Shown: piece by piece, positions 42,963-64,000 of the stretch
Layout: each line of letters starts with the position of its first letter
Position numbering within the stretch: the first letter of the stretch is position 1
NCBI RefSeq assembly: GCF_000613285.1
Contig: NZ_BAIN01000002.1
Location: 1-64,000 of the forward strand
Origin: Acetobacter papayae JCM 25143
GTDB lineage: Bacteria > Pseudomonadota > Alphaproteobacteria > Acetobacterales > Acetobacteraceae
Direction of reading: 5' to 3'
Length of the DNA: 64,000 nt
Position numbers and translations under genes: made by a program
The notes under the pieces: generated by a model
Database searches by the model: none
What the model was told of the DNA's origin: nothing
Seen by the model: the letters and a program-made list of their open reading frames with translations, nothing else

Positions 42963-42968
42963 AAAAAC

Positions 42969-44258
42969 ATGGCTGATCTGAAAACAGAATTTGCAGGTAT
43001 TCGTTCTCCCAATCCGTTCTGGCTGGCCTCCGCGCCACCAACGGACAAAGCCTATAACGTCAAGCGGGCGTTTGAGGCAGGGTGGGGCGGCGTTGTGTGG
43101 AAAACACTGGGAGAGGACCCGCCGGTGGTCAATGTCAGTTCCCGTTATGGTGGGCTGCACCATCATGGCCGGAAAATGATCGGGTTTAACAATATCGAGC
43201 TGATTTCAGATCGGCCACTTGCGGTCAACATCGCCGAGATCAAGGCAGTCAAAGCCGCTTATCCTGACAGGGCCGTGGTGGTCAGCCTTATGGTGCCATG
43301 CGAGGAGCAAAGCTGGCGCGCCATACTGCCCATTGTTGAGGAAACCGGGGCCGATGGCATCGAGCTGAACTTTGGCTGTCCTCACGGCATGTCCGAACGC
43401 AATATGGGGGCGGCGGTAGGGCAGGTGCCCGAGTATGTGGAAATGGTGACGCGCTGGTGCAAGCAGTTTACCCGCATGCCAGTTATCGTGAAGCTCACTC
43501 CTAATGTAACGGATATTCTCATGCCTGCGCGCGCGGCCTTACGTGGCGGGGCGGATGCCGTTTCCCTCATCAACACGGTGCAGTCCATTATTGGGGTCGA
43601 TCTAGACCAGATGGCGCCTATGCCGGTTGTGGATGGTATGGGCACGCATGGTGGCTATTGTGGCCCGGCCGTCAAGCCTATTGCCTTGCGTATGGTGGGG
43701 GAAATCGCGCGGGATCCCGGACTGGCCCACCTGCCTATTTCTGGCATGGGTGGTATTGAAACATGGCGCGACGCAGCGGAATTTCTGGCTATGGGGGCCT
43801 CTGCCCTGCAGGTCTGCACGGCGGCCATGCATTACGGCTTTCGTATCGTGCAAGACATGATAGACGGCTTGTCCGCGTGGATGGATGAAAAGGGCTATCA
43901 GGATATCCACGCACTGAGCGGGCGGGCGGTGCGCAATTATGTGCCATGGAACACGCTCAACCTGAAGTTCAGAACCATAGCACATATCGATCAGGAACGC
44001 TGCGTGGGCTGCGGACTGTGCCATATCGCCTGCGAGGACACCTCGCATCAAGCCATTGCTGTTGGTGGCGTGTCCGGTGCGCGCCGGTACGATGTCATTG
44101 AGAGTGAATGCGTTGGGTGCAATCTGTGTGCTCATGTCTGCCCTGTTGCGGAGTGCATCACCATGCAGCCGCAACCAGTCGATGGGCACGTGACATGGCG
44201 TGAATACGAACACAGTGCAGAGCGCCTAGCAGGCTGCTCAGTAGCTCACGGCGTATGA
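42969..44258 (+). CDS. preA: NAD-dependent dihydropyrimidine dehydrogenase subunit PreA
   Basis: 429 aa. DHOD-type FMN barrel with a C-terminal ferredoxin. ASAPPTDK and ELNFGCPHGMSERNMGAAVGQ carry the substrate and active-site Cys region; GMGGIETW is the FMN phosphate site. Two 4Fe-4S motifs follow: CVGCGLCHIAC and CVGCNLCAHVCPVAECI. With PreT it reduces uracil to dihydrouracil. The stop lies 14 bases before the amidohydrolase start. Confidence 0.95.
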   Translation: MADLKTEFAGIRSPNPFWLASAPPTDKAYNVKRAFEAGWGGVVWKTLGEDPPVVNVSSRYGGLHHHGRKMIGFNNIELISDRPLAVNIAEIKAVKAAYPDRAVVVSLMVPCEEQSWRAILPIVEETGADGIELNFGCPHGMSERNMGAAVGQVPEYVEMVTRWCKQFTRMPVIVKLTPNVTDILMPARAALRGGADAVSLINTVQSIIGVDLDQMAPMPVVDGMGTHGGYCGPAVKPIALRMVGEIARDPGLAHLPISGMGGIETWRDAAEFLAMGASALQVCTAAMHYGFRIVQDMIDGLSAWMDEKGYQDIHALSGRAVRNYVPWNTLNLKFRTIAHIDQERCVGCGLCHIACEDTSHQAIAVGGVSGARRYDVIESECVGCNLCAHVCPVAECITMQPQPVDGHVTWREYEHSAERLAGCSVAHGV

Positions 44259-44272
44259 GGGGAGAGGTGAAC

Positions 44273-45567
44273 ATGACACAACAGGACAGGACCGTGCAGG
44301 GGGCGGGCCCCCGTGGGCAGGGTGATAATTTGCGGGTGGATGGTGCCGCCCTGTGGCGCGATCTGATGGACAGTGCGCGTTTTGGAGCGACCCCCAAGGG
44401 CGGGATACGTCGTCTGGCCCTGACGGAGGAGGACAGGCAGGTCAGGGAATGGTTTGTCAGTGCTTGCGAGGCTCTGGGCTGCGTGGTTTCATATGACTCC
44501 ATGGGCAATATTTTTGCCCGTAGGCCGGGGCAAGATAATACCCTGCCGCCACTGGCCATGGGCAGCCACCTTGATACGCAACCTACAGGGGGGCGCTTCG
44601 ATGGTATTCTGGGTGTGCTGGGCGGGCTTGCGGTGCTACGCTCCCTACACATGGCCGGGCATGTAACCCGCCACCCGGTGGAGCTTGTCTGCTGGACGAA
44701 CGAGGAAGGCTCGCGGTTCTCGCCTCCCATGATGTGTTCTGGCGTGTTCGCGGGTGTTTTTACCGAGCACGAGGTTCTGGAAAAGCAGGATCGTGCTGGC
44801 CTGCGCTTTGGCGATGCCCTGCAGGCTATTGGCTACAAAGGGGCGGAGCGTGTGGCCAGCACCCTTTGACAGCGTATTTTGAGCTCCATATCGAGCAAGG
44901 CCCCATTCTGGAAGCGGAAGGCCATACCATCGGGATTGTCCGCGGTATTCAGGGCGCGCGGTGGTACGAGGTTACGCTCAGGGGCAGGGAGGCGCATGCG
45001 GGCTCCACGCCCATGCCAATGAGGCACGATGCTCTTGTGGCTGCGGCAGGCATGGTTCTGGCTGTCAGACATGTGGCGATGCAGCATGCGCCTTTGGCAG
45101 TTGGTACGGTCGGCCTTGTTGAGAACCGCCCGAATAGCAGTAACGTTGTGCCGGGAGAGGTCTTTTTCACGATCGATATCCGTCACCCTGAAGATGCATT
45201 CGTGGTCGACATGGAAAAAGCCTTGATGGGTGATCTGGAGCGCCTAGCGGCGGAAAGCGGGGTGCTGCTGGATGTGAAGCGTATATGGGATGCACCCGCC
45301 GTACCTTTCGATCCAGCCTGCATAGAAATTGTGGCGCGCGCGTCGGACCAGCTTGGTTATTCTGCTCGTGAGATAGTGTCTGGCCCCGGTCATGATGCGG
45401 GTTACATCGCTCGTGTAGCGCCAACCGCCATGATTTTCGTGCCCTGCAAGGACGGCTTGAGCCATAATGAAGAAGAAAGCATTCTTGAGGAGGATGCCGA
45501 AAAAGGTGCCAATGTGCTGTTGGCGGCCCTGTTGGCGGCGGATGCTCGTTTCAGTCGTGGTGCCTGA
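44273..45567 (+). pseudogene. Zn-dependent amidase/hydantoinase-carbamoylase (beta-ureidopropionase-like), frameshifted
   Basis: M20-family enzyme of about 431 aa after repair. It hydrolyses N-carbamoyl-beta-alanine or a similar N-carbamoyl amino acid. Metal-binding motifs are GSHLDTQPTGGRFDG, the catalytic WTNEEGSRFSPPMM, HIEQGPILE and HAGSTPM; GPGHDAGYI and HNEEES are near the end. The frame is lost near 44849 (KGAE/RV), beyond which CGQHPLTAYFELHIEQG runs one base out. Together with dihydropyrimidinase at 47869 it would finish uracil breakdown to beta-alanine. Confidence 0.86.
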
Positions 45568-45678
45568 TTACGCCTGAGTGGCGGGAATAAAACATACCGG
45601 CTGGTCTTTTGCGTGTGAATGGCTGTGCTATAGCCGTAAAGGTGGTGCAACCTCCATGTGAAAGACTGCCCCGGCGAT

Positions 45679-46329
45679 ATGACCAAACAGAAAAAAACAT
45701 CAGAAGAACCGGGTGTTCCGCGGCGCAATAATTCAAAACAGATATTGGATGCCGCGGAAAAGGTATTTTCTGTCCATGGGTTATCTGGCACGCGGATAGA
45801 AGATATCGCCCGTGCCTGTGGGCTGCCTAAGGCGAATGTCCTTTATTATTTCAGCACCAAGGAAAAACTTTATAAGGCAACGCTGGAGCGTGTGCTTGGG
45901 CACTGGCTCGCGAATGCCGAATTGCACCTCTCGGCGGAACAGGATCCTGCGGAAGGATTGAGACAGTATGTGCTCTCAAAAATGGCATTTTCGCAAAAGC
46001 ACCCTGCTGCATCGCGTCTGTTCATGCATGAATTGCTTGCAGGTGGGCGGCATGTGCGGGGGTTCCTTAAAACAACCATGCGCGAGCATGTTGCCAACCG
46101 TGTCACGGTTTTTAAGGTATGGCAGGAAAAAGGTCTGATCCAGATTGCCGATCCGGTGCATTTCCTGTTTTTGCTCTGGGCGATGACACAGTCTTACGCG
46201 GATATGCAGGTTCAGTACGCTACCTTGCTGGGGCGTGCGCGTCTGACTCAGGCTGATTTTGAAAACGGCACAGAGGCGATATTGCAACTGGTCAATGCCG
46301 CCTGCCTGCAAAAGCCGGATGGAAACTGA
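45679..46329 (+). CDS. rutR: RutR-like TetR-family regulator of pyrimidine catabolism
   Basis: 216 aa from MTKQKKTSE; a GTG at 45658 is in frame but lacks support. The helix-turn-helix is GTRIEDIARACGLPKANVLYYFSTKEKLY, followed by the TetR_C_6 ligand domain typical of RutR (HPAASRLFMHELLAGG, WAMTQSYADMQVQ). RutR in enteric bacteria senses uracil. Three copies of a RutR-like operator flank the operons here. The 3' end overlaps the convergent permease. Confidence 0.88.
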   Translation: MTKQKKTSEEPGVPRRNNSKQILDAAEKVFSVHGLSGTRIEDIARACGLPKANVLYYFSTKEKLYKATLERVLGHWLANAELHLSAEQDPAEGLRQYVLSKMAFSQKHPAASRLFMHELLAGGRHVRGFLKTTMREHVANRVTVFKVWQEKGLIQIADPVHFLFLLWAMTQSYADMQVQYATLLGRARLTQADFENGTEAILQLVNAACLQKPDGN

Positions 46330-47728
46330 GCAGCAGATAGAGCAGGACAGACACGCCTAGGCCTGTGAGTTCGGACAGGCTGGCCAGAACTGGCCATACA
46401 GGAGCGAAGATCAGCATAATACTTACGGCTGTTCCACCGGCCAGTGCTATGAGCGCGCGCGGGTTGATGCCGCGGGAATACCAGTAAATATCCTGAGGGC
46501 GGGCGCTGTAGAGAGCCTGTATGTCGACCTGCTTATTGTGGATGATGTGATAATCCGTAATGACAATGCCGGCGAGCGGGCAAATGAACGCCCCCAGTAT
46601 GTCCAGTGTCAGGTGAATAAGTTCGGGGCGTGCATAAAGGTTCCACGGCGTAATACCTATGGCGGCTGTGGCGGCCAGCAGGCCCCCTTTGCGCCAGGAT
46701 AGTGCTTGTGGGGCAAGGCTGGAAAAATCAAAAGCGGCAGAGACGAAATTGGCGGTAATGTTGATGCCAGCCGTAGCAATGACGAATGTTATAATGCCGA
46801 TAACAGAAGCAGTCGTGTTGTCGAGGCGTGCAATGGTCTCGACCGGGTCTGTCAGTAACTGCCCGAAAACCGGGAGTGTCAGGCTGATACTGCTCAGGCT
46901 GAGTAGGGAAAAGGCAAGGAAATTCAGCGGAAGCCCAAGGAAATTGCCTTTTCGTACAGAATCGGGGCTGGAAGCGTAGCGTGCAAAATCACCAAAATTG
47001 AGAACGATCGGCGAAAAATACGCCACGACCATTGTGATGATATCCAGCATGCCACCAAGAGATGAAGCGGTTTTTGCAACCGGTAAGCTTGCAGGAAAAT
47101 GCCAGCCAGTTCGGGACAAAAGCCATAGGACCAGAACAATCATCATTCCATAAATTGCAGGACCAGCCCAGTCTATGAAGCGGCGTACGGCGTTCATGCC
47201 GTTCCAAAATATGGTGATCTGTAGCCCCCAGACAGCAAGAAATGCTACCCAGCCTATCAGTGAAAGCCCGGCAAAGCCGTGCAGACTGGCATTGGCAAGT
47301 GGGCTGAAAGCGGGATGGAGGGCTATGACCAGAATGACGAGCGCGTTTGAGGCAAGCCATGTCTGGATACCATACCAGCCAATGGCGATGCAGCCCCTAA
47401 TCGTGGCAGGCACGGCAGCGCCATAAACCCCAAATGCCATTCGGGCTACGACGGGAAAGGGAGCGCCCGAGACCATACTGGGGCCAGCTATGAGGTTGCA
47501 ACCCAATTGAACGATGATAATGGCCGCCATCATGGCGGCCAGAATATGTGTAACCGGCAGGCCGATCATAAGAAAACTGCCGATTGTGACATAACCTGCG
47601 ACACTGTGGATGTTTGACATCCACAAAAACAGATAGTCTTTCCAGGCCCATGTGCGCAGGGCCGAGGGTGATAGGTCGTCATTTGTCAGGGCTGGGTCAT
47701 TCTGATCCGCGGATTTGCTGTCAAACAT
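46292..47728 (-). CDS. NCS1-family nucleobase/hydantoin/allantoin permease
   Basis: About 478 aa from the ATG at 47728. Twelve hydrophobic spans. NCS1 markers include SPSALRTWAWKDYLFLWMSN, NLIAGPSMVSGAPFPVVARMAFGVYGA (TM2), and GDFARYA. It resembles PucI/HyuP-type carriers for hydantoins, allantoin or dihydropyrimidines. It is second to the codB homologue in this cluster. The next gene, divergent at 47869, is dihydropyrimidinase, so dihydrouracil, uracil or hydantoin are good candidates. Confidence 0.85.
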   Translation of the reverse strand: MFDSKSADQNDPALTNDDLSPSALRTWAWKDYLFLWMSNIHSVAGYVTIGSFLMIGLPVTHILAAMMAAIIIVQLGCNLIAGPSMVSGAPFPVVARMAFGVYGAAVPATIRGCIAIGWYGIQTWLASNALVILVIALHPAFSPLANASLHGFAGLSLIGWVAFLAVWGLQITIFWNGMNAVRRFIDWAGPAIYGMMIVLVLWLLSRTGWHFPASLPVAKTASSLGGMLDIITMVVAYFSPIVLNFGDFARYASSPDSVRKGNFLGLPLNFLAFSLLSLSSISLTLPVFGQLLTDPVETIARLDNTTASVIGIITFVIATAGINITANFVSAAFDFSSLAPQALSWRKGGLLAATAAIGITPWNLYARPELIHLTLDILGAFICPLAGIVITDYHIIHNKQVDIQALYSARPQDIYWYSRGINPRALIALAGGTAVSIMLIFAPVWPVLASLSELTGLGVSVLLYLLLSFHPAFAGRRH

Positions 47729-47765
47729 TGTCCTTGCCCCATCGATTCCTGCTGACAAAGAGTAT

Positions 47766-47779
47766 TGACCATTTAGTCA
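47766..47779. promoter_or_regulatory. RutR-like operator between permease and dihydropyrimidinase
   Basis: TGACCATTTAGTCA differs from the RutR consensus TGACCAnnTGGTCA at one position. It sits 38 bases before the permease start and 90 before the dihydropyrimidinase start, well placed to control both. Confidence 0.65.
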
Positions 47780-52010: not shown

Positions 52011-52334
52011 TTAGTGGCTTATCATCCACGGTCGTTTAGAGGGAAACACCTTTGCCGCCGAAACGCTTTGTGCTGTCAGGGGTGTTTTTTGGCGACAGCA
52101 CCCACAGTTTGGACCATGTCGCCCTGAGACCTTTCGAGGCTCATGGGATGCGCGTTCATTCGTAGCGAAAGCATTGCGCCGGGCCTGTGGCATCATGGCC
52201 AGCGCAGGTAGCGTTATCATCCGCTGTGACACCTTGCCGCAGGAGGGACACTCCTGCGGCGTGGCGAACTGCTCCATGCCCCGCATAAGCGAGAACGAAC
52301 CGCAGTCCGGGCATTCGTAATCATACAGTGGCAT
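52011..52334 (-). CDS. fmdB: FmdB-family zinc ribbon protein
   Basis: About 107 aa from MPLYDYECPDCGSF. Two CxxC knuckles (CPDC, CPSC) form the FmdB/CxxC zinc ribbon within the first 45 residues; a later GPNCGCC adds cysteines. In Methylophilus the formamide-induced fmdB gene lies beside fmdA and was proposed to regulate it. Here it follows fmdA by 11 bases. Confidence 0.88.
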   Translation of the reverse strand: MPLYDYECPDCGSFSLMRGMEQFATPQECPSCGKVSQRMITLPALAMMPQARRNAFATNERASHEPRKVSGRHGPNCGCCRQKTPLTAQSVSAAKVFPSKRPWMISH

Positions 52335-52345
52335 GTGCAATCCTT

Positions 52346-53575
52346 TTACAGATCGGGTGACATGGGCACATCAGTGCCGGGTGCGATGCCGCCTTTGGGG
52401 CCATCCGCGCCGGGGTTGATGTCAAAGTCAAAGATTTCCGTCGGTATCCACAATGTGGCGCAGGAGTTGGGAATATCCACGACCCCGCTGACATGCCCCT
52501 GCACAGGTGCTGAGCCCAAAAGGCTGTAAACCTGAGCCCCCGTATAGCCGAATTTCTTGAGGTATTCGATCGCATTCAGGCAGGCCTGACGATAGGCTAC
52601 GTTGAAGTCTAGGTAATGCTGCTGACCGGTTTCATCCACCGAAATACCTTCGAATATCAGATGGTCATTGTAGACAGGTCGGATCGGGCTAGGTTTGAAA
52701 ATCGGATTTTTGATTCCGTATTTTGCCATACCACCCTTGATGAGATTGACACGAAGATGCGCCCAGCCGGGCATTTCAATCGCGCCACAGAAAGTAATTT
52801 CACCATCCCCCTGGCTAAAATGCAGGTCGCCCATGGAAAGACCTGCCCCGTTGACATAAACGGGAAAAAACACCCGTGCGCCGCGTGTCAGATCCTTGAT
52901 ATCGCAATTGCCACCATGCTCACGCGGAGGAACCGTGCGAGCACCCGTTGCTGCGGCATCAGCCCGGGCTTCACCTTTCAGGCGGCCCATATGGGCTGTG
53001 GGCACATGGGGCGGGTTGGCCAGAGGCGGCACGCGGGTCGGGTTGGTGGCAATCAGCCCGGTTTCACGCCGGTTCCATGTTTCCAGAAGATCTGGAGAGG
53101 GTAGGGTACCTATCAGGCCGGGATGAAGCTGCCCGGCAAAGCGCACCCCCGGTACATGCCGTGACTGAGTGAACAGGCCATCAAAATCCCAGATGGATTT
53201 ACGGGCTTCAGGAAAATGGTCGGTCAGAAAGCCGCCACCATTTGTTTTTGAGAAAAATCCGTTAAAACCCCATGGGTTCTCTTTCAGTGTTCCAATATCC
53301 AGCAGGTCAACCACCAGCAGGTCGCCCGGTTCAGCCCCCTCCACACCAATAGGGCCGCTGAGGAAATGCACGATGCTCAGATCAACATCGCGCACATCAT
53401 CTGCGCAGTCGTTATTTTTAATGAAACCGCCAGTCCAGTCATAACATTCAAGGATGAAGTCATCGCCCGGTTTGACCGTTGCAACCATGGGCAGATCAGG
53501 ATGCCAGCGGTTATGAACATTTTCGTTCTCATAGGCGGATTGAGACAGGTCAACCTTTACGAGTGTTTCAGGCAT
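52346..53575 (-). CDS. fmdA: Formamidase/acetamidase FmdA
   Basis: 409 aa amidohydrolase that releases ammonia from formamide or other short amides. Family blocks include NVHNRWHPDLPM, DWTGGFIKNNDCADDVRDVDL, ENPWGFNGFF, PREHGGNCDIKDL (the HGGNxD metal region) and GDLHFSQGDGEI. The second ATG (53575) lies about seven bases after AAGGA and is preferred to 53581. Directly downstream of the Urt transporter genes, which suggests imported amide is hydrolysed at once. Confidence 0.94.
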   Translation of the reverse strand: MPETLVKVDLSQSAYENENVHNRWHPDLPMVATVKPGDDFILECYDWTGGFIKNNDCADDVRDVDLSIVHFLSGPIGVEGAEPGDLLVVDLLDIGTLKENPWGFNGFFSKTNGGGFLTDHFPEARKSIWDFDGLFTQSRHVPGVRFAGQLHPGLIGTLPSPDLLETWNRRETGLIATNPTRVPPLANPPHVPTAHMGRLKGEARADAAATGARTVPPREHGGNCDIKDLTRGARVFFPVYVNGAGLSMGDLHFSQGDGEITFCGAIEMPGWAHLRVNLIKGGMAKYGIKNPIFKPSPIRPVYNDHLIFEGISVDETGQQHYLDFNVAYRQACLNAIEYLKKFGYTGAQVYSLLGSAPVQGHVSGVVDIPNSCATLWIPTEIFDFDINPGADGPKGGIAPGTDVPMSPDL

Positions 53576-53599
53576 TGTCATGTCCTTATGGTTTACGGT

Positions 53600-54289
53600 T
53601 TAAACAGAAAGGAAGCGAGCTATGCGGTCTTCATCCACATTGGCGCGGCTATCCTCATGGACAATCTGTCCATTTTCGATCACTAGAACTCTATCCGCGA
53701 TATCCAGCGCGAAGCTGAGCACCTGCTCGGCCACAAGAATGGTCAGACCCATTTCATCGCGGATGCGCCGTAGCGTGCGGGCAAGTTCAAGAATGATCGA
53801 TGGCTGGATGCCCTCAGTTGGTTCATCCAGCAAAAGCACTTTGGGGCGGGTTGCCAGAGCGCGGGCAATAGCAAGCTGCTGCTGCTGCCCGCCTGACAGG
53901 TTGCCTCCCCGGCGTGTACGCATTTCCTTCAGAACCGGGAAAAGTGTATACAGGTTCTCGGGAACAGTTTTCCCACCCCGCACAAACAGGCCGGTTTCAA
54001 TATTCTCCTGCACGGTCATGGCTGAAAACACCATGCGACCCTGCGGCACAAAAGCCAGTCCGGCAGCTACGCGCTGGTAACTGGGCAGATTTGTGATTTC
54101 CTGCCCATCCAGCGCGATATGACCGGAACGCACCGGAACCATCCCGATGAGTGATTTCATGAGTGTGGTTTTGCCCATGCCGTTGCGCCCCATGATGGCG
54201 ACAATCTCGCCCGGGCGCAGAGTCATATCCACCCCGTGCAACACCTCGCTCTCGCCGTAGCAGACCCGGAGCTGAGAGATTTCAAGCAT
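53600..54289 (-). CDS. urtE: Urea/short-chain amide ABC transporter ATPase UrtE
   Basis: 229 aa LivF-type ATPase. Walker A GRNGMGKTT (about 36-44), signature LSGGQQQQLA, Walker B LLLDEPTEG. ATG at 54289 follows the urtD stop by 13 bases; the long upstream extension overlaps urtD and is rejected. Partner of UrtD. Confidence 0.92.
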   Translation of the reverse strand: MLEISQLRVCYGESEVLHGVDMTLRPGEIVAIMGRNGMGKTTLMKSLIGMVPVRSGHIALDGQEITNLPSYQRVAAGLAFVPQGRMVFSAMTVQENIETGLFVRGGKTVPENLYTLFPVLKEMRTRRGGNLSGGQQQQLAIARALATRPKVLLLDEPTEGIQPSIILELARTLRRIRDEMGLTILVAEQVLSFALDIADRVLVIENGQIVHEDSRANVDEDRIARFLSV

Positions 54290-54302
54290 TGCGTTGTCTT
54301 TT

Positions 54303-55049
54303 TCAGTGGCCAAGGTACACCTCGATAACGCGCGGATCGTTCTTGACATGCTCCATGGAACCTTCGGACAGGATACGGCCCTGATGCAAAACCGTGACTT
54401 GATGGGCAATTTCCTCAACAAACCCCATGTCGTGTTCAATCACGATAACCGATCGTGTTCGGATAATGTCTTTCAGCAATGCTGCTGTTTTGACACGTTC
54501 GCTTACGGTCATGCCGGCCACAGGTTCATCAAGCATCAGCAGGGCAGGATCCTGAATGAGCAGCATGCCCAGTTCCAGCCACTGCTTCTGCCCATGGCTG
54601 AGGTCTTCAGCACGGCGGTCAAGTTGGTCGTCCAGAAAAATGGTGCGGGCGACTTCATTGACCCGCTCCACCACTGCCGTATCCCGGCGGAAGATCAGAG
54701 ACCCCATAATACCCCGCCCTTTGGGGTAGGAAATTTCCAGATTTTCGAACACCGTCAGGTCTTCGTAAATCGAGGGGTTCTGAAACTTGCGGCCGACACC
54801 TGCTCGCACAATCTCATGTTCTTTCAGGCGTGTCAGTTCCGTGCCCTTGAAACGGATGGAGCCTGAAGTGGCACGAGTACGCCCACAGATTAGATCCAGA
54901 ACGGTAGTTTTGCCTGCTCCGTTCGGTCCGATTATGACCCGCAGCTCGCCCTCACGAACGGAGAAGGATAGGTCGTTGACTGCCCTGAACCCATCGAAGG
55001 AAACCGTGAGGTCTGTGACGGACAGAAGAGGTTCATTACCCGTTTGCAT
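54303..55049 (-). CDS. urtD: Urea/short-chain amide ABC transporter ATPase UrtD
   Basis: 248 aa LivG-type ATPase. Walker A GPNGAGKTT, the GRKFQNPSIYEDLTVFENLE segment characteristic of UrtD, signature LSHGQKQWLELGM and Walker B LLMLDEPVAGM. The start overlaps the urtC end by 14 bases. Confidence 0.93.
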   Translation of the reverse strand: MQTGNEPLLSVTDLTVSFDGFRAVNDLSFSVREGELRVIIGPNGAGKTTVLDLICGRTRATSGSIRFKGTELTRLKEHEIVRAGVGRKFQNPSIYEDLTVFENLEISYPKGRGIMGSLIFRRDTAVVERVNEVARTIFLDDQLDRRAEDLSHGQKQWLELGMLLIQDPALLMLDEPVAGMTVSERVKTAALLKDIIRTRSVIVIEHDMGFVEEIAHQVTVLHQGRILSEGSMEHVKNDPRVIEVYLGH

Positions 55050-56166
55050 GATCGGCCTCCCTGCCAGCGTGAACCGGTGCTTTGGATGACGAACCAAGCA
55101 GGCGGCTGATATAAGGGTCGAGATAGGTGCGGTAGAGGCTGGCAAGCCCGCCAGGCAGCACCACAACAATGAAGACAAACAATGCCCCCATGGCGAACAT
55201 CCAGACCTGCGGCATGGTTTCTGAAAAGCTCGTGCGCGCCCAGTTTACCAACAGGGTGCCGTATATGACGCCCAGAAGGGATGTGCGGCCGCCTACCGCG
55301 CAGTAAATAACCATTTCGATAGATGGCACGATCCCGACAAAGCTGGGGGACATAAACCCCACCTGAAGGGTAAACATGGCACCGCCAATCCCCGCCATGG
55401 CCGCGGCAAAGCAGAAAACGAAGGTTTTGAAACTGGCGACATCATAGCCTGAAAACCGCACCCGATCTTCGCGTTCACGCATCGCCACCAGAATACGCCC
55501 TAGCTTGCTGCACCGGATGAAATGCGCGCCACCCAGACAAACCAGCAGCAGGGCAATGGTGACAAAATACAGGATAAGCTTGGCGTGATCGGTGCGAATA
55601 TCCCAGCCGTTAAGTGTGCGCAGGTCGGTAATACCGTTGACACCCCCCGTATACCCCTGTTGCCCGATGATGAGGATCGTCAGGATTGAGGCAATGGCCT
55701 GTGTGATGATGGCGAAATACGTTCCCCCAACCCGGCGCTTGAACATGGACAGGCCGATGATGAGTGCGAGCAGCATAGGCACGGCTGCGACCGCCACAAT
55801 CGAAAATGCAAGGCTGTGGAACGGTTGCCAGAACCACGGCAACGTTGTGATCTGGTTCCAGTCCATGAAGTCGGGAATACCCGGTGTGGACTGGATCTTG
55901 GTTGCTTCAGGTGTGGAGGCCTGCAGTTTGAGGAACATGGCCATGCAGTAACCGCCAAGGCCGAAGAAAATACCCTGTCCCAAGCTGAGAATACCCGCAT
56001 CGCCCCAGCACAAGACCAGCCCGAGTGCCACGAAAGCATAGGTCAGGTATTTCCCAACAAGGTTGAGCCTGAACGGTTCAAGTACCAAAGGTAGGATAAC
56101 GGCCAGAATGGCTACGAGAACCAGAACAAAGAGCGCGGTTTTCCTGTCACGTAATAACGATTTCAT
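55036..56166 (-). CDS. urtC: Urea/short-chain amide ABC transporter permease UrtC
   Basis: 376 aa LivM-type inner-membrane permease with about ten spans. GDAGILSLGQGIFFGLGGY is the conserved family motif, followed by GGTYFAIITQAIASI and the EAA-like loop RVRFSGYDVASFK. The large soluble insertion ATKIQSTPGIPDFMDWNQIT is typical of UrtC. Confidence 0.93.
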   Translation of the reverse strand: MKSLLRDRKTALFVLVLVAILAVILPLVLEPFRLNLVGKYLTYAFVALGLVLCWGDAGILSLGQGIFFGLGGYCMAMFLKLQASTPEATKIQSTPGIPDFMDWNQITTLPWFWQPFHSLAFSIVAVAAVPMLLALIIGLSMFKRRVGGTYFAIITQAIASILTILIIGQQGYTGGVNGITDLRTLNGWDIRTDHAKLILYFVTIALLLVCLGGAHFIRCSKLGRILVAMREREDRVRFSGYDVASFKTFVFCFAAAMAGIGGAMFTLQVGFMSPSFVGIVPSIEMVIYCAVGGRTSLLGVIYGTLLVNWARTSFSETMPQVWMFAMGALFVFIVVVLPGGLASLYRTYLDPYISRLLGSSSKAPVHAGREADHANG

Positions 56167-56175
56167 GATCTTTCC

Positions 56176-57102
56176 TCACCGCCGCACTTTGAGAACGAAC
56201 AGACCCTGCGGGCGGAGCATCAGAATGATGACAACGCTCAGCAGCACGATGACCTGCGCCATGGAACCGCTCAGGAAAAACTCCAGAATTGAACGGGTCT
56301 GTGAAATACTGAAGGCCGAAGCAATGGTGCCTGTGAGGCTTTGTGCTCCGCCAAATGCCACGACCAGAAACGTATCTACAATATAGAGCTGACCGGCCGT
56401 GGGGCTGGTGGAGCCAATCATGGTAAAGGCGGCCCCGGCTACCCCTGCAATGCCGCAACCCAGACCAAAGGTCATGCGGTCAACCCGCTCGGTATTGATA
56501 CCCACCGCACCAGCCATGGCACGGTTTTGCATGACCGCACGCACCTGCTTGCCCCAGCCTGAACGGAACAGGAGAAGATACACCCCGGCCGTAATAACCA
56601 GCGTCATGCCCATGACAATTATGCCGTTGATGGGAATTTCGATGCTGTCAGACAGGTGGGTAGACCCCATCATCCATTCCGGCAGGTTCACACCCACTTC
56701 ACGCGCACCGAAAATGGAGCGGTACGCTTGCTGGAGCATGAGGCTGATGCCCCATGTAGCCAGCAATGTGTCCAGTGGACGCTTGTAAAGAAACCGGATC
56801 AGCGACCACTCCAGCGCCATGCCCAGCAGGCCCGGCACAATGAATGAAACAATGATTGCGACAAAGAAATACAGGCTGAACAATCCCGGCATATATGCAC
56901 TGAACAGCCGGGAGCATTCATAGGTCATGTAGGCCCCGAGGATCATGAACTCCCCATGGGCCATGTTGATGACACCCATCTGCCCGAAAATGATCGCCAG
57001 CCCCAGCGCCATCAGCAGATAGACGGAAAACATGATCAATCCGGCAAAACCCTGCATGACCAGGATGGAGCCAAGATCGCTGAATGAATAGCCCATCAGC
57101 AT
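56176..57102 (-). CDS. urtB: Urea/short-chain amide ABC transporter permease UrtB
   Basis: 308 aa LivH-type permease. Motifs GVINMAHGEFMILGAYM and VMQNRAMAGAVGINTERVD are well conserved. It lacks the long periplasmic N-terminal extension found in many UrtB proteins, as in amide-type homologues. Ten bases before urtC. Confidence 0.92.
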   Translation of the reverse strand: MLMGYSFSDLGSILVMQGFAGLIMFSVYLLMALGLAIIFGQMGVINMAHGEFMILGAYMTYECSRLFSAYMPGLFSLYFFVAIIVSFIVPGLLGMALEWSLIRFLYKRPLDTLLATWGISLMLQQAYRSIFGAREVGVNLPEWMMGSTHLSDSIEIPINGIIVMGMTLVITAGVYLLLFRSGWGKQVRAVMQNRAMAGAVGINTERVDRMTFGLGCGIAGVAGAAFTMIGSTSPTAGQLYIVDTFLVVAFGGAQSLTGTIASAFSISQTRSILEFFLSGSMAQVIVLLSVVIILMLRPQGLFVLKVRR

Positions 57103-57170: not shown

Positions 57171-58433
57171 TTACTGGTAGCCAACGGGGAAGGGGTTGGG
57201 CTCCATCAGATCCGGTGTCTGGTAAATCACGTTGAACTGACCATCGGTGCGGGCTTGACCCACAAGAGTGCGGCTCCACAGATGGTGGTTGGGGTGAATA
57301 CGCACATACCCTTCGGGGGCGTTTTTGAATTCCACGCCGGGTGAGGCGTCTATCACCTTATTGATGTCGAAACTGCCTGCTTTTTCCACGGTCAGTTTCC
57401 ATAGCCACGGACCCAGATAGGCGGCCTGTGTAACATCGCCGATCACGCTGTTTTCGCCCCACATTTTCTTGAATGCGGCAACGAATTCCTTGTTGGCGGG
57501 GTTATCAAGGCTCTGGAAATATTTCATGCAGGCATAGGCCCCGGCGATGTTTTCGCCCCCGATCCCGAGAATTTCATCTTCGGTCACGGAAATGGTCATC
57601 AGGGTCTGCTTGCTCAGGTCGATACCGGCCGCCTTGAGCTGTTTGTAAAAGGCGACATTAGAGCCACCGACAATGATGGCGTAAATCACATCGGGCTTGT
57701 GCAGTTTGATCTTGTTGATGACGGAATTGAACTGGGTATGACCAAGGGGGAAGTATTCCTCACCAATAACCTTGGAATCCTTCAGGTGGCCTTCGATATG
57801 TTTGCGCGCAATCTTGTTAGCTGTGCGCGGCCAGATATAGTCCGAACCCAGAAGGTAATAGGTTTTGGCTTTCTTTTCGCGGCTGACCCAGTCCAGACCG
57901 GCTAGAATCTGCTGCGTTGCTTCCTGCCCGGTGTAAATGACGTTGCGTGACTGCTCCAGCCCTTCGTAAAAAGTGGGGTAATACAGCATGCCATTATACT
58001 GCTCGAATACGGGTAGAACGGCCTTGCGCGAGGCAGATGTCCAGCAACCGAAAACGGCAGCACATTTGTCGTTTTCAAGCAGTTTCCGGGCTTTTTCCGC
58101 AAAGGTAGGCCAGTCGGATGCACCATCTTCCTGCACAACCTTGATCTGGCGACCCAGCACCCCACCCGATGCGTTGATCTGGGCAATGGCAAGTTTTTCG
58201 GCTTCGACCGAACCCGTTTCGCTGATAGCCATGGTGCCGGTAATGGAATGCAGGATACCAACTGTTACCGTATCATCGGTAACGGCAAGGCCTGTGGTGT
58301 TGACCGCGGATGTGGCTGACGCGGCCTGCGCAAGCCGTGGCAGGCCAGCCATGACCGGAAGTGCCGCGAGGCCTTTGAGAATCTGTCGGCGATTTGATTG
58401 TATACCGAAAATACCTGTCTTTTTCTCTACCAT
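57171..58433 (-). CDS. urtA: Urea/short-chain amide-binding protein UrtA (FmdD-like)
   Basis: 420 aa periplasmic binding protein. A twin-arginine-like signal (NRRQILKG, about 14-21, then AGLPRLAQAASA) precedes the mature domain. Binding-protein blocks include VGILHSITGTMAISE, AVFGCWTSASRKAVLPVFE, and LLGSDYIWPRTANKI. First gene of the minus-strand operon urtABCDE-fmdA-fmdB. With a formamidase and no urease genes in the window, formamide or acetamide is a likelier ligand than urea. Confidence 0.92.
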   Translation of the reverse strand: MVEKKTGIFGIQSNRRQILKGLAALPVMAGLPRLAQAASATSAVNTTGLAVTDDTVTVGILHSITGTMAISETGSVEAEKLAIAQINASGGVLGRQIKVVQEDGASDWPTFAEKARKLLENDKCAAVFGCWTSASRKAVLPVFEQYNGMLYYPTFYEGLEQSRNVIYTGQEATQQILAGLDWVSREKKAKTYYLLGSDYIWPRTANKIARKHIEGHLKDSKVIGEEYFPLGHTQFNSVINKIKLHKPDVIYAIIVGGSNVAFYKQLKAAGIDLSKQTLMTISVTEDEILGIGGENIAGAYACMKYFQSLDNPANKEFVAAFKKMWGENSVIGDVTQAAYLGPWLWKLTVEKAGSFDINKVIDASPGVEFKNAPEGYVRIHPNHHLWSRTLVGQARTDGQFNVIYQTPDLMEPNPFPVGYQ

Positions 58434-58516: not shown

Positions 58517-58532
58517 TACGTCGAACGACGTA
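58517..58532. promoter_or_regulatory. Candidate response-regulator operator in the urtA/NCS1-kinase promoter region
   Basis: TACGTCGAACGACGTA: 7-bp arms TACGTCG/CGACGTA around AA. It lies 84 bases before urtA and 97 before the sensor gene. LuxR-type regulators bind such palindromes; the cognate regulator would be that at 62055. Confidence 0.5.
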
Positions 58533-58628: not shown

Positions 58629-61600
58629 ATGCGCCAACGTATCCTTCCGATCCGCCGGGATTATAACCGCTGGGTCGGCAACGAGATGCTGGAAGACTAT
58701 GCCCTGCGCTTTACCGCGCGCAAGGCTAGGCGCTGGTCCTCCCTTACGGTTGCAAACACGGCCTTTGGCGGTGTTTCCTTCCTTGCACTCGAGCTGATCG
58801 GCGGCGTCACAACGGTCCATTACGGCTTTGCAAATGCCGCAGTGGCGCTGGGGCTGACCTGTGTGCTGATTTTTCTGACTGCCCTGCCCATATCGTTTTA
58901 CGCGACACAGGGGGGAGTGGATATTGACCTGCTGACACGAGGGTCCGGGTTTGGCTATGTCGGCTCCACCATTACATCGCTGGTCTATGCCTCGTTTACA
59001 TTCATCTTTTTTGCCATTGAAGGTGCCATTCTAGCCAAAATTTTGCTGGCGTGCTTCGGCATCCCGCTCTGGTTTGGCTATATCATCGCCACCGTGCTGG
59101 TGGTGCCGATCGTGGCTAATGGCATACGCTTTATCAGCCAGTTTCACCTCTGGACTCTCCCTCTCTGGCTGGGTCTGCAGCTTCTACCTTTTGTTTTTCT
59201 GGCGCGTTCAGGCAATGGCCACGCATTGGTAATGGAATGGACCCGCTTTGGGGGGCTTGATGGCACCCCGGGGCTTAGTCTCATGGCCGTTGGAGCAGCG
59301 GCTTCCGTTATGTTTTCTGTCGTGGCTCAGATTGGCGAGCAGGTAGATTATCTGCGCTTTCTGCCGCCGCCCACTACATCGGGCATGACCAGTCGGGCGC
59401 GCTGGTGCTGGCGCTCTTGTTTGGCGGAGCGGGATGGATTGTATTTGGCGGAGGTAAAATTCTGGCGGGTTCGTTTCTAGCATGGCTGGTGCTGCATGTG
59501 GGCGGCACACCGGCAGATGCAGTGCAGCCCACCGTCATGTATCTGCTGGCTTTTTCCAATGTGACCACATACCCGATGCTGGCTCTGGTACTATCTGCGT
59601 GCTTTGTCATGGTCTCGCAGATCAAGATCAACATCACCAACGCCTATGCGGGGTCGATCGCATGGTCGAATTTTTTCTCGCGCCTTACGCATAGCCATCC
59701 GGGACGGGTTGTATGGGTGCTGTTCAATGTCACTATCGCTCTGGTGTTGATGGAAGAGGGTATTCACCAGACCATCACCTTTACGCTTATTGCCTATTCC
59801 TGCATTGCCGCCTCATGGATTGGCGCTCTGGTAGCGGATCTGACCGTTAACAAGCCTTTGGGTTTCAGCCCGGCGCATACCGAATTCCGTCGTGCCTATC
59901 TGTATGACATCAACCCGTTGGTGTAGGCAGCATGACACTGGGGCTCATCACATCAGCCTTGGCCTATGGGGGCATTCTGGGTCCACTGGCGCAGGCATTT
60001 GCGCCGTTTCTCGCGCTACTGGTGGCTTATGTCAGCGCGCCACTGATCGCCTGGACCACAGGGGGGCGATATTATCTGGCGCGCAGGCCCATCAGCCTAA
60101 AGACCAATAATACCTACAGCCTTAAATGCGTGATTTGCGAACATAAATTCGAGCGTGAAGACATGGCGCTGTGCCCTGCCTACGCAGGCCCGATCTGTTC
60201 ATTATGCTGCACGCTTGATGCCCGGTGTCATGATAGCTGCAAACCACAGGAAGCCCGTGCGGGCTACCAGCTTTCGTTTATCAGCCGCCGGATTTTGAGC
60301 TGGCTCGTGCCCGCGGGAGTGGATGAAGGACCATACCGCTCTGTACTGCGCTATTTCAGCCTGTTTACACTCATGGGGGGGGGCATAGGGCTGGTTCTGC
60401 TGATCATTTATGATGAGGTCGTTCGTGTTGCTGAAGAACGTGCGCAGGATGTAGCCAATGTATTCTGGCTGGCTTTCCTGCTGCTGCTATGTGCGGCCGG
60501 AATCATGACATGGTTTGTGGTGCTGGCCCTGCAAAGTCGGCGCGTTTCCGAGGATGAAAGCCGCCGACAGACCCGATTGCTGATGAATGAAATCCGAGCG
60601 CATCGCCGCACTGACATTCAACTCCAGCGTGCAAAGGAGCGGGCTGAAGCGGCAAATCTGGCCAAAAGCCGGTTTATTGTCGGTGTCAGCCACGAGGTGC
60701 GCACGCCGCTCAACGCGATCATGGGGTATGCCCATCTGCTGGAGCATAATCTGATTTCTCCCGCACGCAGGCTGGATGGCCTGCGCGCCATTCAGCGTGG
60801 TGCCGAACATCTGACTGGCCTGATAGAAGGTCTGCTGGATATTTCCAAAATCGAAGCCGGGCGGATCGAGCTGTACCGAGAGGAATTGCAACTTCCCGAC
60901 TTTCTGGATCAGCTTGTTAGCATGTTCCGCCTCCAGACCGAGGCCAAAGGGATTGGTTTTGAATGCACTATTCCGTCTGATCTGCCGCATCTGGTCTACA
61001 CGGATGCGCGCCGCCTGCGACAGATTCTGATCAATCTCCTGTCCAATGCGGTCAAGTTTACCCAGCATGGCTCTGTTAGGCTGACAGTGCTCTGGCAGGC
61101 CGAAATTGCTGAATTCATGATAGAGGATACAGGCATAGGTATTCCACCTGATGACCTCTCGCGTATTTTCGAGCCGTTTCAGCGAGGGCAGGGGGCTGCT
61201 GCCGCCATACCGGGAATAGGTCTGGGTCTGACTATAACCCAGCTTCTGGTTCAGATTATGGGGGGGGAACTTTCAGTTTTCAGCACGTCGGGGCTGGGGA
61301 GCTGCTTCAAGGTTCGGTTGATGCTTTCACAAGCGCCACAGACCTGCCAGCCTGCTCCGGTCGTTGAGCATATCAGCGGTTATCGTGGTGGTCGTCTGAC
61401 CGCTATGGTGGTGGATGATGACCCAGTACATCGCGACATGCTTCGTGACATGCTCGAGCCGCTGGGTTTTCTGATTTACACAGCGACAGACGCACAGGAT
61501 TGCCTGAATTTTTCCAACCTGCTTACGGTAAATCTGTTTTTGCTCGATGTCTCCATGCCCGGTATGGACGGGTTTACACTGGCCAGACAGTTACGTGCAG

Positions 61601-62058
61601 GTGGAGCTGACAAAGCCACTATTCTGATCGTGTCTGCCAGTACACACGACCTGATCAGTCGTCCCGCGACAGATGACAGCTATAACGCCCTGCTCAGCAA
61701 ACCGGTTCATGTGCCCACATTGCTGGAACTGATTGGCCGGACAATGACCATAGAATGGACCATGCACGATCTGCCGGTTGCGGAGCGGACCATGCCTGAG
61801 CTTTCTTCTTCGCAGGGCGGCCTAGAGCAAACACCATCAGGGTTCAGCACTCATGCCGTAATTCCTCTGACTGCGAAACAGATTTCCGAGCTCCAGCGCC
61901 TTGGTGAGTTGGGTTATATCGAAGGTATCCGCCAGACACTTGCACGGATAGAGGCTGAACAGCCTGATACGCGAGACAGTATTGAACCCCTTCGAGCCAT
62001 GATTGCGGCTTCACGGATCGACACTTTTCTGCACAGCTTGCGGAACATAGCGCAATGA
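58629..62058 (+). pseudogene. NCS1 transporter-histidine kinase-receiver hybrid sensor, frameshifted twice
   Basis: Repaired length about 1,140 aa. Residues 1-460: an NCS1 permease-like domain of about 12 spans (VGNEMLEDYALRF, TANTAFGG-like VANTAFGGVSF, QGGVDIDLLTRG). Then a Cys-rich knuckle region (CVICEHKFEREDMALC, CSLCCTLDARC), two more spans and a HisKA domain (VSHEVRTPLNAI, His codon at 60691). HATPase boxes are NLLSNAVKF, EDTGIGIPP and GIGLGLT. A receiver with phospho-Asp codon at 61546 (LLDVSMPGMDGF) and a short C-terminal HPt-like tail without obvious His follow. Frame losses near 59367 and 59918 are single missing bases; the second splits NPL/GVGSM, so transporter and kinase are one gene. 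Confidence 0.85.
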
Positions 62059-62966
62059 ATACGAACCAGATCATTCTTGTTATTGATGATTCTCCTGACT
62101 CGCTAGGAATGATAAACGAGGCGCTGAGCGCGAGCGGCTATTCGGTACTGGTGGCCCTATCGGCTGAAACCGCCTTTACTATCATGAACACAATCCGGCC
62201 GGATCTGATTTTGCTTGATGCCATTATGCCAGGCATGGATGGGTTTGAAACCTGTACTATTCTCAAGCGTACGCCGGGCCTGAGTGATATTCCGATCATT
62301 TTCATGACCGGGCTTAGCCAGCCAGAATATATTGTCAAAGCACTGACAACCGGCGGCGTTGATTATGTGCAAAAACCCGTTATTCCATCAGAGGTTTTAG
62401 CTCGTATTCGTGTCCATATTGGAAACGCGCATAAAACACAAAGTGCGCGTGAGGCGCTCGATCATGCCGGAAGGCACCTGTTGGCGCTGGATATACGCGG
62501 GCGCCTGCTTTGGGCAACGCCCAAGGCTGCAAGCCTGCTTAATCACGATATGAAAGAGGGAGAAAGCATTCTTCCCCCTGAGGCAGAAAGCTGGGTGTTA
62601 ACCTGTGCCCGGCGCAATACCCCAGCGGGGGCGCGCCGCAGCTTTGATTTTCCTCATGCGGAAACCACAAGTCTAGAGCTTACCTATATGGGACAGACCC
62701 GACCCGGGGAATATCTGCTAAGGCTGACGGCAATCCAGCATAAACGCGAAGAGTTCATTCTGCGTGAACGCCTGAGCCTGACCATGCGTGAAGCCGAGGT
62801 GTTGCTCTGGCTGGGAAGAGGCAAGACAAACCGTGATATAGCGGAGATTCTTTCCATAAGCCCACGTACTATCAACAAACATCTTGAGCAGGTTTATACT
62901 AAAATAGGGGTTGAAAATCGTGCCTCTGCTACGGCTGTCGTCATGAATGCTTTGCAGGATTCCTAA
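62055..62966 (+). CDS. Response regulator with LuxR-type DNA-binding domain
   Basis: 303 aa. N-terminal receiver (DD11-12, phospho-acceptor Asp55 in LLDAIMPGMDGF, Lys107) followed by a PAS-like middle (about 145-225, DIRGRLLWATPKAASLL) and C-terminal GerE/LuxR helix-turn-helix (TMREAEVLLWLGRGKTNRDIAEILSISPRTINKHL, about 243-277). The start overlaps the kinase stop as ATGA. The likely targets are urtA and the sensor/porin genes. Confidence 0.92.
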   Translation: MNTNQIILVIDDSPDSLGMINEALSASGYSVLVALSAETAFTIMNTIRPDLILLDAIMPGMDGFETCTILKRTPGLSDIPIIFMTGLSQPEYIVKALTTGGVDYVQKPVIPSEVLARIRVHIGNAHKTQSAREALDHAGRHLLALDIRGRLLWATPKAASLLNHDMKEGESILPPEAESWVLTCARRNTPAGARRSFDFPHAETTSLELTYMGQTRPGEYLLRLTAIQHKREEFILRERLSLTMREAEVLLWLGRGKTNRDIAEILSISPRTINKHLEQVYTKIGVENRASATAVVMNALQDS

Positions 62967-63019: not shown

Positions 63020-64000
63020 TTAGTACTGGAACTGAACCCCTGCCAGAAAGCCGTCTGAGGCTTTGGTGGATGGTGAATTGTAATGAACATAATCAAGGGT
63101 AATTACGGAGTTATGGCCATCTATCACATAGTTTGAACCGGCTTCAAACTGTGTGGTTTTACCATTATTGGTGGCAGCATAGTGATATGGCTTGAACTGC
63201 TGGTAGCGTATGACCGGCTGAAACCGTCCCCACCCCAACGTGTAGGGGATCAGATACGCAGTATCCAGCATGAAGCAGTGCCCGCCTGAATACCCCCTAC
63301 ATTGGCATCATTGGCAGCCCCGTGCCAGCCTGATGCAACGTCTTGCACGCCGTCGGTATGATACTGATAATATGCGCCTTCAAGCTATAGGTGCCGGATT
63401 TTCCATCTTTTCCAATGCGTTTTTCAAAAAGTCCATCAACGTTCCACGCTTTGTAGTCACCACGGTTCTGCGCTGTGCCGACACCATCCACCTGATACTG
63501 CCCAACCAGAGCAATGGCCAGAATATCATGTTGGCCGTAATAGGTGCTGGCGGTGTAGTACGCGGGTGAATCCTCAGGATCGAGAAAGTTATACTCGGCT
63601 CTGGCGGCAAAAAGCGGGTGATTCCCGCCATTCGATGCGTTATCGTAACGATTGTGGCCGCGGAAAATGCCGGCAACATACCGGAAATGATTATGTGCAA
63701 GACGGCCCCAGATATTGATCCCGTCATCACGGCCTGACCATACCCCCGGGTATTGCGCCACTACGCCGGGATAAAGGTAGCTGTTCAGGTAATACGGCCC
63801 GTCAAGATTGGAACGATCGCTCGGTGTCAGCATCCGGCCGACCCAGATATTGATTGCGGAGCTGGGTTCAAATTGAAAAATGCCGTCGAGAAGGTTCCAG
63901 TTATTTCCAGCAAGCCGTTCAACATTGACCGTTGCCTTGATATGTTTGTTCAGCTGCGCGCCCATATACAGACGGAAGTTATCGAGTGATACCGAGTTTG
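63020..64000 (-). pseudogene. Outer-membrane porin (amide porin FmdC-like), frameshifted, partial at window edge
   Basis: C-terminal 330 or so residues of a porin; the start lies beyond the window. The family traits are MGAQLNKHIKATVNVERL, WVGRMLTPSDRSNLDGPYYLN and a final beta strand FLAGVQFQY ending in an aromatic residue. Frame is lost near 63376 (SLK/AYYQYHTDGVQDVASGW) and near 63282 (IQAG/HCFMLDTAYLIPY), each by one missing base. Neighbours argue for an amide/urea porin, as in the Methylophilus fmd cluster, where fmdC encodes it. Confidence 0.75.

What the first reader, a model, noticed from the sequence alone, without database searches (positions are those of the whole stretch)
58629..62966. 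An NCS1 nucleobase transporter welded to a histidine kinase, with a cysteine knuckle cluster between
The gene joins a permease-like domain, two CxxC-rich segments (60128-60245), HisKA, HATPase and receiver. Its response regulator overlaps it. It sits divergently from an amide/urea importer and formamidase. The permease domain may act as the ligand sensor. The role of the cysteines (metal, redox or structural) is not obvious. This is the most interesting unit in the window.
Basis: partly seen in the sequence, partly recalled or inferred. Interest (0 to 1): 0.75.

Follow-up and report, generated by a model that had tools for sequence, protein, structure and literature searches.

The report
Permease-fused kinase sensing urea and amides
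Many bacteria carry a sensor protein made by joining a transporter-like membrane domain and a small cysteine-rich knot to a signalling kinase, and its gene neighbours and a shared DNA site suggest that it detects urea or small amides and switches on the genes that take them up and break them down.

Summary
The unit is real, but in this assembly the sensor gene is split by two frame changes. Essential rpoB of the same genome is split too, so sequencing error is the likelier cause. Outside this genome, 56 of 56 strong homologue places (398 genomes searched) are one open frame of 894-1365 aa. The N-terminal domain is an outlying NCS1-like branch: 0 of 19 members match Pfam's NCS1 family, yet the best folds are Mhp1 and CodB, and profile comparison finds NCS1 but not SLC5. 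The ligand is probably not a nucleobase: 39 of 39 neighbourhoods examined in other Pseudomonadota hold urea/amide-importer (urt), formamidase or urease genes, and 4 of 6 unfused relatives examined sit beside urease or formamidase. A perfect inverted repeat (TACG-N8-CGTA) lies between urtA and the sensor; it recurs in 45 of 70 homologous upstream regions (shuffles: mean 0.31) and before amiF in congeners. Best reading: a transceptor kinase whose LuxR-type regulator binds this site and activates urea/short-amide uptake and hydrolysis. The orphan AmsS/StkS of Acinetobacter baumannii belongs to the family. The cysteine module is probably a zinc site. Ligand, zinc and phosphotransfer are untested.

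The parts
58629..59480 (+). Sensor, piece 1: N-terminal NCS1-like permease domain (first about 250 residues), frame 1 of 3
   Evidence: 50-59% identical to intact homologues
59405..59926 (+). Sensor, piece 2: permease domain, middle (holds the KIN-TNAYAG motif), frame 2 of 3
   Evidence: 56-67% identical to intact homologues
59908..62058 (+). Sensor, piece 3: permease end, cysteine module, two further hydrophobic helices, kinase, receiver, C-terminal tail
60127..60240 (+). Eight-cysteine module C-x2-C-x11-C-P-x6-C-x2-C-C-x5-C-x3-C, probably zinc-binding
   Evidence: small beta-hairpins plus a short helix in the model
60661..60861 (+). HisKA with the phospho-acceptor histidine (SHEVRTPLN)
   Evidence: (residues 244-310 of piece 3)
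61003..61326 (+). HATPase_c
   Evidence: residues 358-465
61405..61734 (+). Receiver domain of the hybrid kinase
   Evidence: residues 492-601
62055..62966 (+). Response regulator: receiver plus LuxR/GerE DNA-binding domain; ATGA overlap with the sensor
58517..58532 (.). Candidate operator TACGTCGAACGACGTA, 84 bp from the urtA ATG and 97 bp from the sensor ATG
   Evidence: only TACG-N8-CGTA in the 64-kb window
57171..58433 (-). urtA-like periplasmic binding protein, divergent from the sensor
56176..57102 (-). urtB-like permease
55036..56166 (-). urtC-like permease
54306..55061 (-). urtD-like ATPase (span of homology)
53603..54343 (-). urtE-like ATPase (span of homology)
52349..53599 (-). fmdA formamidase (open frame)
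52014..52370 (-). fmdB-like small zinc-ribbon protein (open frame)
   Evidence: 42% match of one neighbour locus; name partly recalled
63023..63998 (-). Outer-membrane porin (FmdC-like by position), broken by two frame switches here
   Evidence: porins beside homologous loci

Best explanation
The gene encodes a transceptor-type hybrid histidine kinase: a 12-helix NCS1-fold domain that no longer has the sodium site of Mhp1 serves as the membrane-embedded receptor for urea or short-chain amides. Ligand binding in the permease-like pocket changes its conformation; the change passes through a cytoplasmic eight-cysteine (probably zinc) module and two further transmembrane helices to the kinase, which alters phosphorylation of the overlapping LuxR-type response regulator. 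The regulator binds the inverted repeat TACG-N8-CGTA between urtA and the sensor and activates urtABCDE-fmdA-fmdB (uptake and hydrolysis). Shown here by computation: fusion in relatives, NCS1-like fold, gene company, conserved cysteines, conserved operator-like repeat. Inferred: ligand, direction of the response, zinc, binding of the regulator to the repeat, and the phosphotransfer route (the tail after the receiver has no conserved histidine, so either direct kinase-to-regulator transfer or an unlinked Hpt).
For: Fusion: 56 of 56 strong places outside this genome, in 51 of 398 Pseudomonadota genomes, are one frame of 894-1365 aa; 16 of 49 congeners' genomes (own included) have it. Fold: Mhp1 Z 28.3 over 420 residues, CodB Z 27.2 over 391; the next non-NCS1 row is Z 21.9 (model pLDDT 71, pTM 0.70). 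Profile: NCS1 prob 97.2, E 3.8e-11, Mhp1-led 98.2 and CodB-led 98.4; SSF control prob 0.3, E 0.2. Company: 39 of 39 sensor loci examined in other Pseudomonadota (of 56 strong places) hold urt, fmdA or urease genes within about 20 kb; 28 of 29 earlier loci hold urt, amiF/fmdA or urease genes; 0 of 20 background stretches at >=45% identity and >150 bits. Unfused relatives beside urease (K. pneumoniae, A. lwoffii, A. ursingii) or fmdA-fmdB (M. osloensis). Operator: 45 of 70 upstream regions, shuffles mean 0.31, max 3; spacers 3-7 and 9-14 give 0-1; in four congeners also 115-119 bp before amiF and in two others before fmdA. Conserved pocket and cation-site residues are the same in formamidase-linked, urease-linked and unfused proteins.
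Against: No ligand, transport, zinc or DNA-binding data exist for this protein. PF02133 is not matched. The published work on the A. baumannii member reports induction by CCCP and wide metabolic effects, not urea (PMC10112286), and the 20 kb around that member holds none of the urt, urease or formamidase references. Outside the genus, only 1 of 13 urease-linked loci has the operator. The cyanobacterial homologue has none of the reference neighbours. With one mismatch allowed, the operator is not commoner genome-wide than its reversed control; position is the evidence. In this assembly the gene is broken.
Confidence: 0.68

Rival explanations
1. Nucleobase sensor: the NCS1-like domain binds uracil, cytosine or a pyrimidine breakdown product, and urea/amide genes are controlled because they salvage nitrogen from it.
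For: NCS1 fold. This window also has a putative pyrimidine-degradation cluster with two genuine NCS1 permeases at 39045-40094 and 46400-47665.
Against: No pyrimidine genes were among the recurrent neighbours I tested for (only NCS1, dihydropyrimidinase-like and PreA-like window proteins: none reported in 29 loci); the constant company is urt/fmd/ure. The Mhp1 pocket residues W117 and Q121 correspond to F/L and an invariant E.
Confidence: 0.1
2. Status sensor: the protein measures something other than the nutrient itself, such as membrane energization, pH or ammonium, and uses the permease fold as a voltage or proton sensor.
For: The A. baumannii member is reported to be induced by CCCP and to affect intracellular pH (PMC10112286, abstract and passages). 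A conserved lysine stands where Mhp1 has sodium-site S312. Ammonium-sensing Amt-kinases exist (PMC5764959, start of abstract in listing).
Against: Such a sensor would not need to track the urt, urease and formamidase genes across alpha-, beta- and gammaproteobacteria, nor share pocket residues with unfused permeases at urease loci.
Confidence: 0.15
3. Redox or metal sensor: the eight cysteines are the signal input and the permease only anchors the kinase.
For: Cysteines conserved in 68 of 70; the A. baumannii authors speculated about one cysteine and quinones (PMC10112286, passage).
Against: Unfused permeases without kinase keep four of the cysteines at their C-terminus, and the permease pocket is at least as conserved.
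Confidence: 0.1
4. Decayed or split gene: in this strain permease and kinase are separate or dead.
For: Three frames in the sequence; the second copy on contig C161 is also broken.
Against: Essential rpoB is broken in the same assembly; homologues are fused; all kinase motifs remain readable.
Confidence: 0.15

Closest known systems
AmsS/AmsR (StkS/StkR) of Acinetobacter baumannii (PMC10112286: abstract, sections 21 and 24, passages; PMC9146086: passages)
   Same: Many-helix (14 TM reported) hybrid kinase, LuxR-type regulator overlapping by 4 bp. The A. baumannii locus L153 has the NCS1-like domain (52% to L009), the eight cysteines, an ATGA overlap, and a sensor frame of 3456 bp (first in-frame ATG choice 8968-12423), the length of the interval 118775-122230 given for the StkSR entry. 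Same family.
   Different: Those passages name no NCS1 fold, zinc module, urea or operator. Its divergent neighbour is an unfused permease of the same family, not urt/fmd; a TACG-N8-CGTA lies between them (L153:8861). Identity with A1S_1393 rests on anatomy and length, not on a locus tag.
CbrA and other SLC5/STAC kinases (CrbS, RpuS) (PMC13022988: passages; PMC9100948, PMC5715377, PMC7096432: listing only)
   Same: LeuT-fold transporter domain fused to a kinase through a cytoplasmic adaptor; proposed to couple transport-domain motion to kinase activity.
   Different: Transporter is NCS1-like, not SLC5 (hhalign prob 0.3 against SSF); adaptor is a small cysteine module plus two helices rather than the four-helix STAC bundle.
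Ks-Amt5, Amt domain fused to a kinase (PMC5764959: start of abstract; passage in PMC8534201)
   Same: Nitrogen-nutrient transporter fold turned receptor and fused to a kinase.
   Different: Unrelated transporter fold; ammonium.
Mhp1 and CodB (NCS1, PF02133)
   Same: Best structural and profile matches over the whole 12-helix domain.
   Different: No PF02133 match; Q121 to invariant E, sodium-site S312/T313 to K/I; fused to a kinase.
fmdCABDEF of Methylophilus methylotrophus (PMC10781810: passages)
   Same: Formamidase, porin and short-amide/urea importer, reported as induced by formamide and urea.
   Different: Its inducer-sensing protein is not named in the passages seen; no sensor comparison was possible.

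Membership tests
NCS1 (PF02133) | match to the Pfam family model | tested here: not met
   0 of 19 members at E<=10; pieces and seven full proteins none; own-genome PF02133 search lists six places, not the sensor
NCS1 (PF02133) | Mhp1/CodB fold | tested here: met
   Foldseek ranks 1-5; VIA Z 28.3 and 27.2, next other family 21.9
NCS1 (PF02133) | profile similarity over the domain | tested here: met
   SSF control negative
NCS1 (PF02133) | Mhp1 pocket/sodium residues (positions recalled; letters checked) | tested here: not met
   W117 to F/L, Q121 to E, S312/T313 to K/I-V; N318 kept
NCS1 (PF02133) | cation-coupled transport of ureide/nucleobase substrates | not testable with these tools
   -
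SLC5/STAC histidine kinases | SLC5 (SSF) transporter domain | tested here: not met
   hhalign prob 0.3; no PF00474 among Pfam matches of 19 members
SLC5/STAC histidine kinases | four-helix STAC domain | tested here: inconclusive
   linker model shows beta-hairpins, short helices; no STAC profile was run
AmsSR/StkSR | about 14 TM hybrid kinase with overlapping LuxR-type regulator | tested here: met
   TM count of the window protein is inferred from the fold plus two helices
AmsSR/StkSR | sequence homology to the A. baumannii protein | tested here: met
   47% over 690 aa between L047 and L153
Hybrid kinase with built-in Hpt | conserved Hpt histidine after the receiver | tested here: not met
   no conserved His in the tails of 22 aligned sensors
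Zinc finger (RING/PHD/FYVE-like) | significant fold or sequence match | tested here: inconclusive
   top Foldseek rows are mostly zinc domains but E>=0.4; VIA Z<5; weak Pfam E 0.1-0.4

The most novel reading that the evidence does not exclude
A widespread, so far unnamed branch of the NCS1 fold recognises urea and short amides. It exists as small unfused permeases with a zinc-finger tail at urease and formamidase loci, and as the receptor of transceptor kinases. Each kinase reads the tail as its conformational relay and drives a one-motif regulon (TACG-N8-CGTA) for uptake and hydrolysis. The orphan A. baumannii AmsSR and the urt-amiF systems on hundreds of Klebsiella plasmids are members, which would recast AmsS as a urea/amide sensor.
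Probability: 0.5. Interest if true: 0.8.

Novelty: new variant of a known kind. Interest (0 to 1): 0.7.

Why it matters
Kinases fused to transporter folds are few in the literature seen here (CbrA is called rare in PMC13022988). This would be a widespread NCS1-type class, at 51 of 398 Pseudomonadota genomes besides this one. It offers the missing inducer-sensing protein for urea/short-amide gene clusters, a ligand hypothesis for the orphan AmsSR, and a compact test case for how transporter motion reaches a kinase, with unfused relatives as natural controls. It also questions annotations such as 'cytosine permease' or 'allantoin permease' next to urease genes.

Tried and rejected
Nucleobase reading: lowered because urea/amide genes are the constant company. 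SLC5/CbrA-like reading: rejected by profile comparison. Separate genes: no separated strong homologue among 398 genomes other than this broken assembly; a 94-aa fragment in a 70%-complete genome (G341) and a few weak NCS1-like matches (E 1e-45 to 1e-11) were not counted.

Ligand-specificity residues: columns that differ between formamidase- and urease-linked sensors were sought; none lies at the mapped pocket or cation positions (best: position 41 and three others, changed in 4 of 5 urease lineages), so no specificity code is claimed. Tree: formamidase/urease context needs at least 5 changes (quick tree, several open forks).

Cysteine fold: no significant match (model pLDDT 69, pTM 0.47). PDB sequence search with the permease-plus-Cys alignment gave kinase matches only above noise. 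Search of 398 genomes with the unfused permease found only fused proteins and the broken G000 copy at E<=1e-60; unfused ones came from plasmid-collection records. Of six unfused proteins examined, A. baumannii and Streptomyces chartreusis had no urease or formamidase reference nearby.

Rows dropped before counts: L205 (28% identical NCS1 protein) and L064 (same sequence as L056) from tree and cysteine counts; L013 (same contig as L054), L063 and L064 from the operator count; L017, L063 lack a whole permease frame. Operator regions are not independent: 20 of 20 in the genus carry the motif, 25 of 50 outside it. One search took 21 loci chosen because they carry the motif.

Papers: searches (open-access PMC only) showed no paper that links this kinase family with NCS1 or with urea; subscription papers were not searched.
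Full report
OBSERVATION. The sequence at 58629-62966 encodes, on the + strand, a permease-like domain, a cysteine-rich segment, HisKA, HATPase_c and a receiver domain, followed by a REC+LuxR response regulator whose ATG overlaps the sensor stop by 4 bp. Upstream and divergent are urtABCDE-like genes, fmdA and a small fmdB-like gene. As sequenced, the sensor is in three frames. The gene is probably whole in the organism: rpoB of the same assembly is also in three frame pieces and whole in three congeners, though rpoC is whole. In a homology test 5 of 23 genes of this genome had frame switches (8 in total), against 10 of 134, all single, in seven congeners. The second copy of the system in this genome (contig C161) is broken too. 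A pseudogene is not excluded.

FUSION. In 49 genomes of the genus, 16 (own included) have a match to the junction region. The genus is Acetobacter by inference: contig length 375100 of one congener equals that of the A. sicerae record. Among 398 Pseudomonadota genomes, 56 had a match to the permease profile at E<=1e-10; four were weak or partial and one is this genome. The other 51 hold 56 strong places (E<=1e-164), each one open frame of 894-1365 aa.

THE PERMEASE DOMAIN. Pfam does not recognise it (0 of 19 members match PF02133 or SSF even at E 10). The AlphaFold2 model of the Azorhizobium member (pLDDT 71, pTM 0.70) is closest to Mhp1 (Z 28.3, rmsd 3.6, 420 residues) and CodB (Z 27.2, 391 residues); a third and fourth Mhp1 entry score 25.6 and 22.3, and the first other family 21.9. 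Profile comparison agrees: prob 97.2 against 15 NCS1 proteins, 98.2 and 98.4 with Mhp1 or CodB leading, and 0.3 against 12 SSF proteins. I call it an outlying NCS1-like branch and do not file it in PF02133. Through the alignment, Mhp1 W117 and Q121 (positions recalled, letters checked) correspond to F/L125 and E129; sodium-site S312 and T313 to K326 and I/V327; N318 to N331 (L047 numbering). E129, K326, N328 and N331 are the same in all 69 rows tabulated, formamidase-linked, urease-linked, unfused and A. baumannii alike. A fixed lysine at a cation site suggests sodium independence; that is inference. The TM6 part of the alignment is gapped and I draw nothing from it.

THE CYSTEINE MODULE. Eight cysteines in the order C-x2-C-x11/12-C-x7-C-x2-C-C-x5-C-x3-C occur in 68 of 70 homologues. 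The two exceptions are unfused permeases, which end in a shortened form, CxxC...CSLCK; further unfused relatives do the same. So the module belonged to the permease branch as well as to the kinases. Its model (pLDDT 69, pTM 0.47) resembles zinc domains only weakly (Foldseek E>=0.4, VIA Z<5). A structural zinc site is my inference.

KINASE. HisKA, HATPase and receiver motifs are conserved. The tail has no conserved histidine in 22 aligned sensors, so it is not an Hpt. Two members have, by eye, an NtrB-like kinase without receiver (L226, L227), and a cyanobacterial one has HisKA and HATPase but no receiver: the permease-Cys-two-helix module is combined with different kinases.

NEIGHBOURS. I fetched 40 regions of other Pseudomonadota (39 of the 56 strong places, from 34 genomes, plus one weak match that proved to be a 28%-identical NCS1 protein). 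All 39 hold urt, formamidase or urease genes, each at least one reference at about 65% identity or more. Of 29 loci from the genus and from the search for related loci, 28 hold such genes; the cyanobacterial one does not. Within the genus the window-type copies have amiF (L045-L049), and many C161-type copies have urease. Background: 0 of 20 stretches from five genus genomes at >=45% identity and >150 bits. A tree of 71 permease domains needs at least 5 changes between formamidase and urease context. On plasmids, 552 records match, 342 of them Klebsiella; one such plasmid has amiF-urtEDCBA divergent from sensor and regulator.

UNFUSED RELATIVES. K. pneumoniae has one directly after ureG (annotated cytosine permease, 38% identical). 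A. lwoffii and A. ursingii plasmids have one beside a urease cluster. M. osloensis has one divergent from fmdA-fmdB. In A. baumannii one is divergent from the sensor, and in S. chartreusis no reference gene except a 30% UrtE match was found.

OPERATOR. The urtA-sensor gap of the window has a perfect repeat TACGTCG-AA-CGACGTA at 58517-58532, the only TACG-N8-CGTA in the window. Of 70 homologous 420-bp upstream regions 45 have TACG-N8-CGTA: 28 of 37 formamidase-linked, 9 of 21 urease-linked, 8 of 12 others. Shuffled regions give a mean of 0.31 (maximum 3 in 200); spacers 3-7 and 9-14 give 0 or 1; ten control half-sites give 0-6. In the genus 20 of 20 regions carry it, outside it 25 of 50, and only 1 of 13 urease-linked regions outside it. 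In 21 loci chosen because they carry the motif, all 30 sites lie within 600 bp before urtA, amiF or fmdA, usually 73-130 bp. In four congeners one site is 115-119 bp before amiF; a fifth has a one-mismatch site there. Genome-wide, the one-mismatch count does not exceed the reversed control. That the regulator binds it is inference.

LITERATURE. PMC10112286 (abstract, sections 21 and 24, passages) describes AmsS, a 14-TM hybrid kinase with a LuxR-type regulator overlapping by 4 bp, CCCP-induced, with broad metabolic effects. PMC9146086 (passages) describes the same system as StkSR; the interval given there is 3456 bp, the length of the sensor frame 8968-12423 in L153. PMC11784087 (passages) gives amsS as A1S_1393. 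None of the passages mentions NCS1 or urea. A formamide review (PMC10781810, passages) says the M. [quoted passage not shown]

VERDICT. New variant of a known kind (transporter-fold kinase, 'transceptor'). The regulated process (urea/short-amide uptake and hydrolysis) is well supported; the direct ligand is likely but untested.

Noticed in passing
window 37961-47776: Putative pyrimidine-degradation cluster (by eye) with two genuine NCS1 permeases, 39045-40094 and 46400-47665 on the minus strand.
   Followed up: partly
G000 contig C161, L017 6706-12505: A second, urea-type sensor/regulator/urtA locus in the same genome, each of the three genes broken by frame switches.
   Followed up: partly
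G000 C167:20259-24378: Essential rpoB in three frame pieces: this assembly carries indel errors.
   Followed up: yes
window 63023-63998: Porin gene next to the regulator, broken by two frame switches.
   Followed up: no
L155:8941-10548; L257, L258, L259: Permeases annotated as cytosine or allantoin permease, or hypothetical, beside urease or formamidase genes: candidate urea/amide permeases.
   Followed up: partly
L226, L227: Same receptor module on an NtrB-like kinase without receiver, beside fmdA.
   Followed up: partly
L015: Cyanobacterial member with another kinase and none of the reference neighbours.
   Followed up: partly
NZ_CP064203.1, CP125156.1: Records of 3.97 and 5.37 Mb filed as plasmids look like chromosomes.
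   Followed up: no
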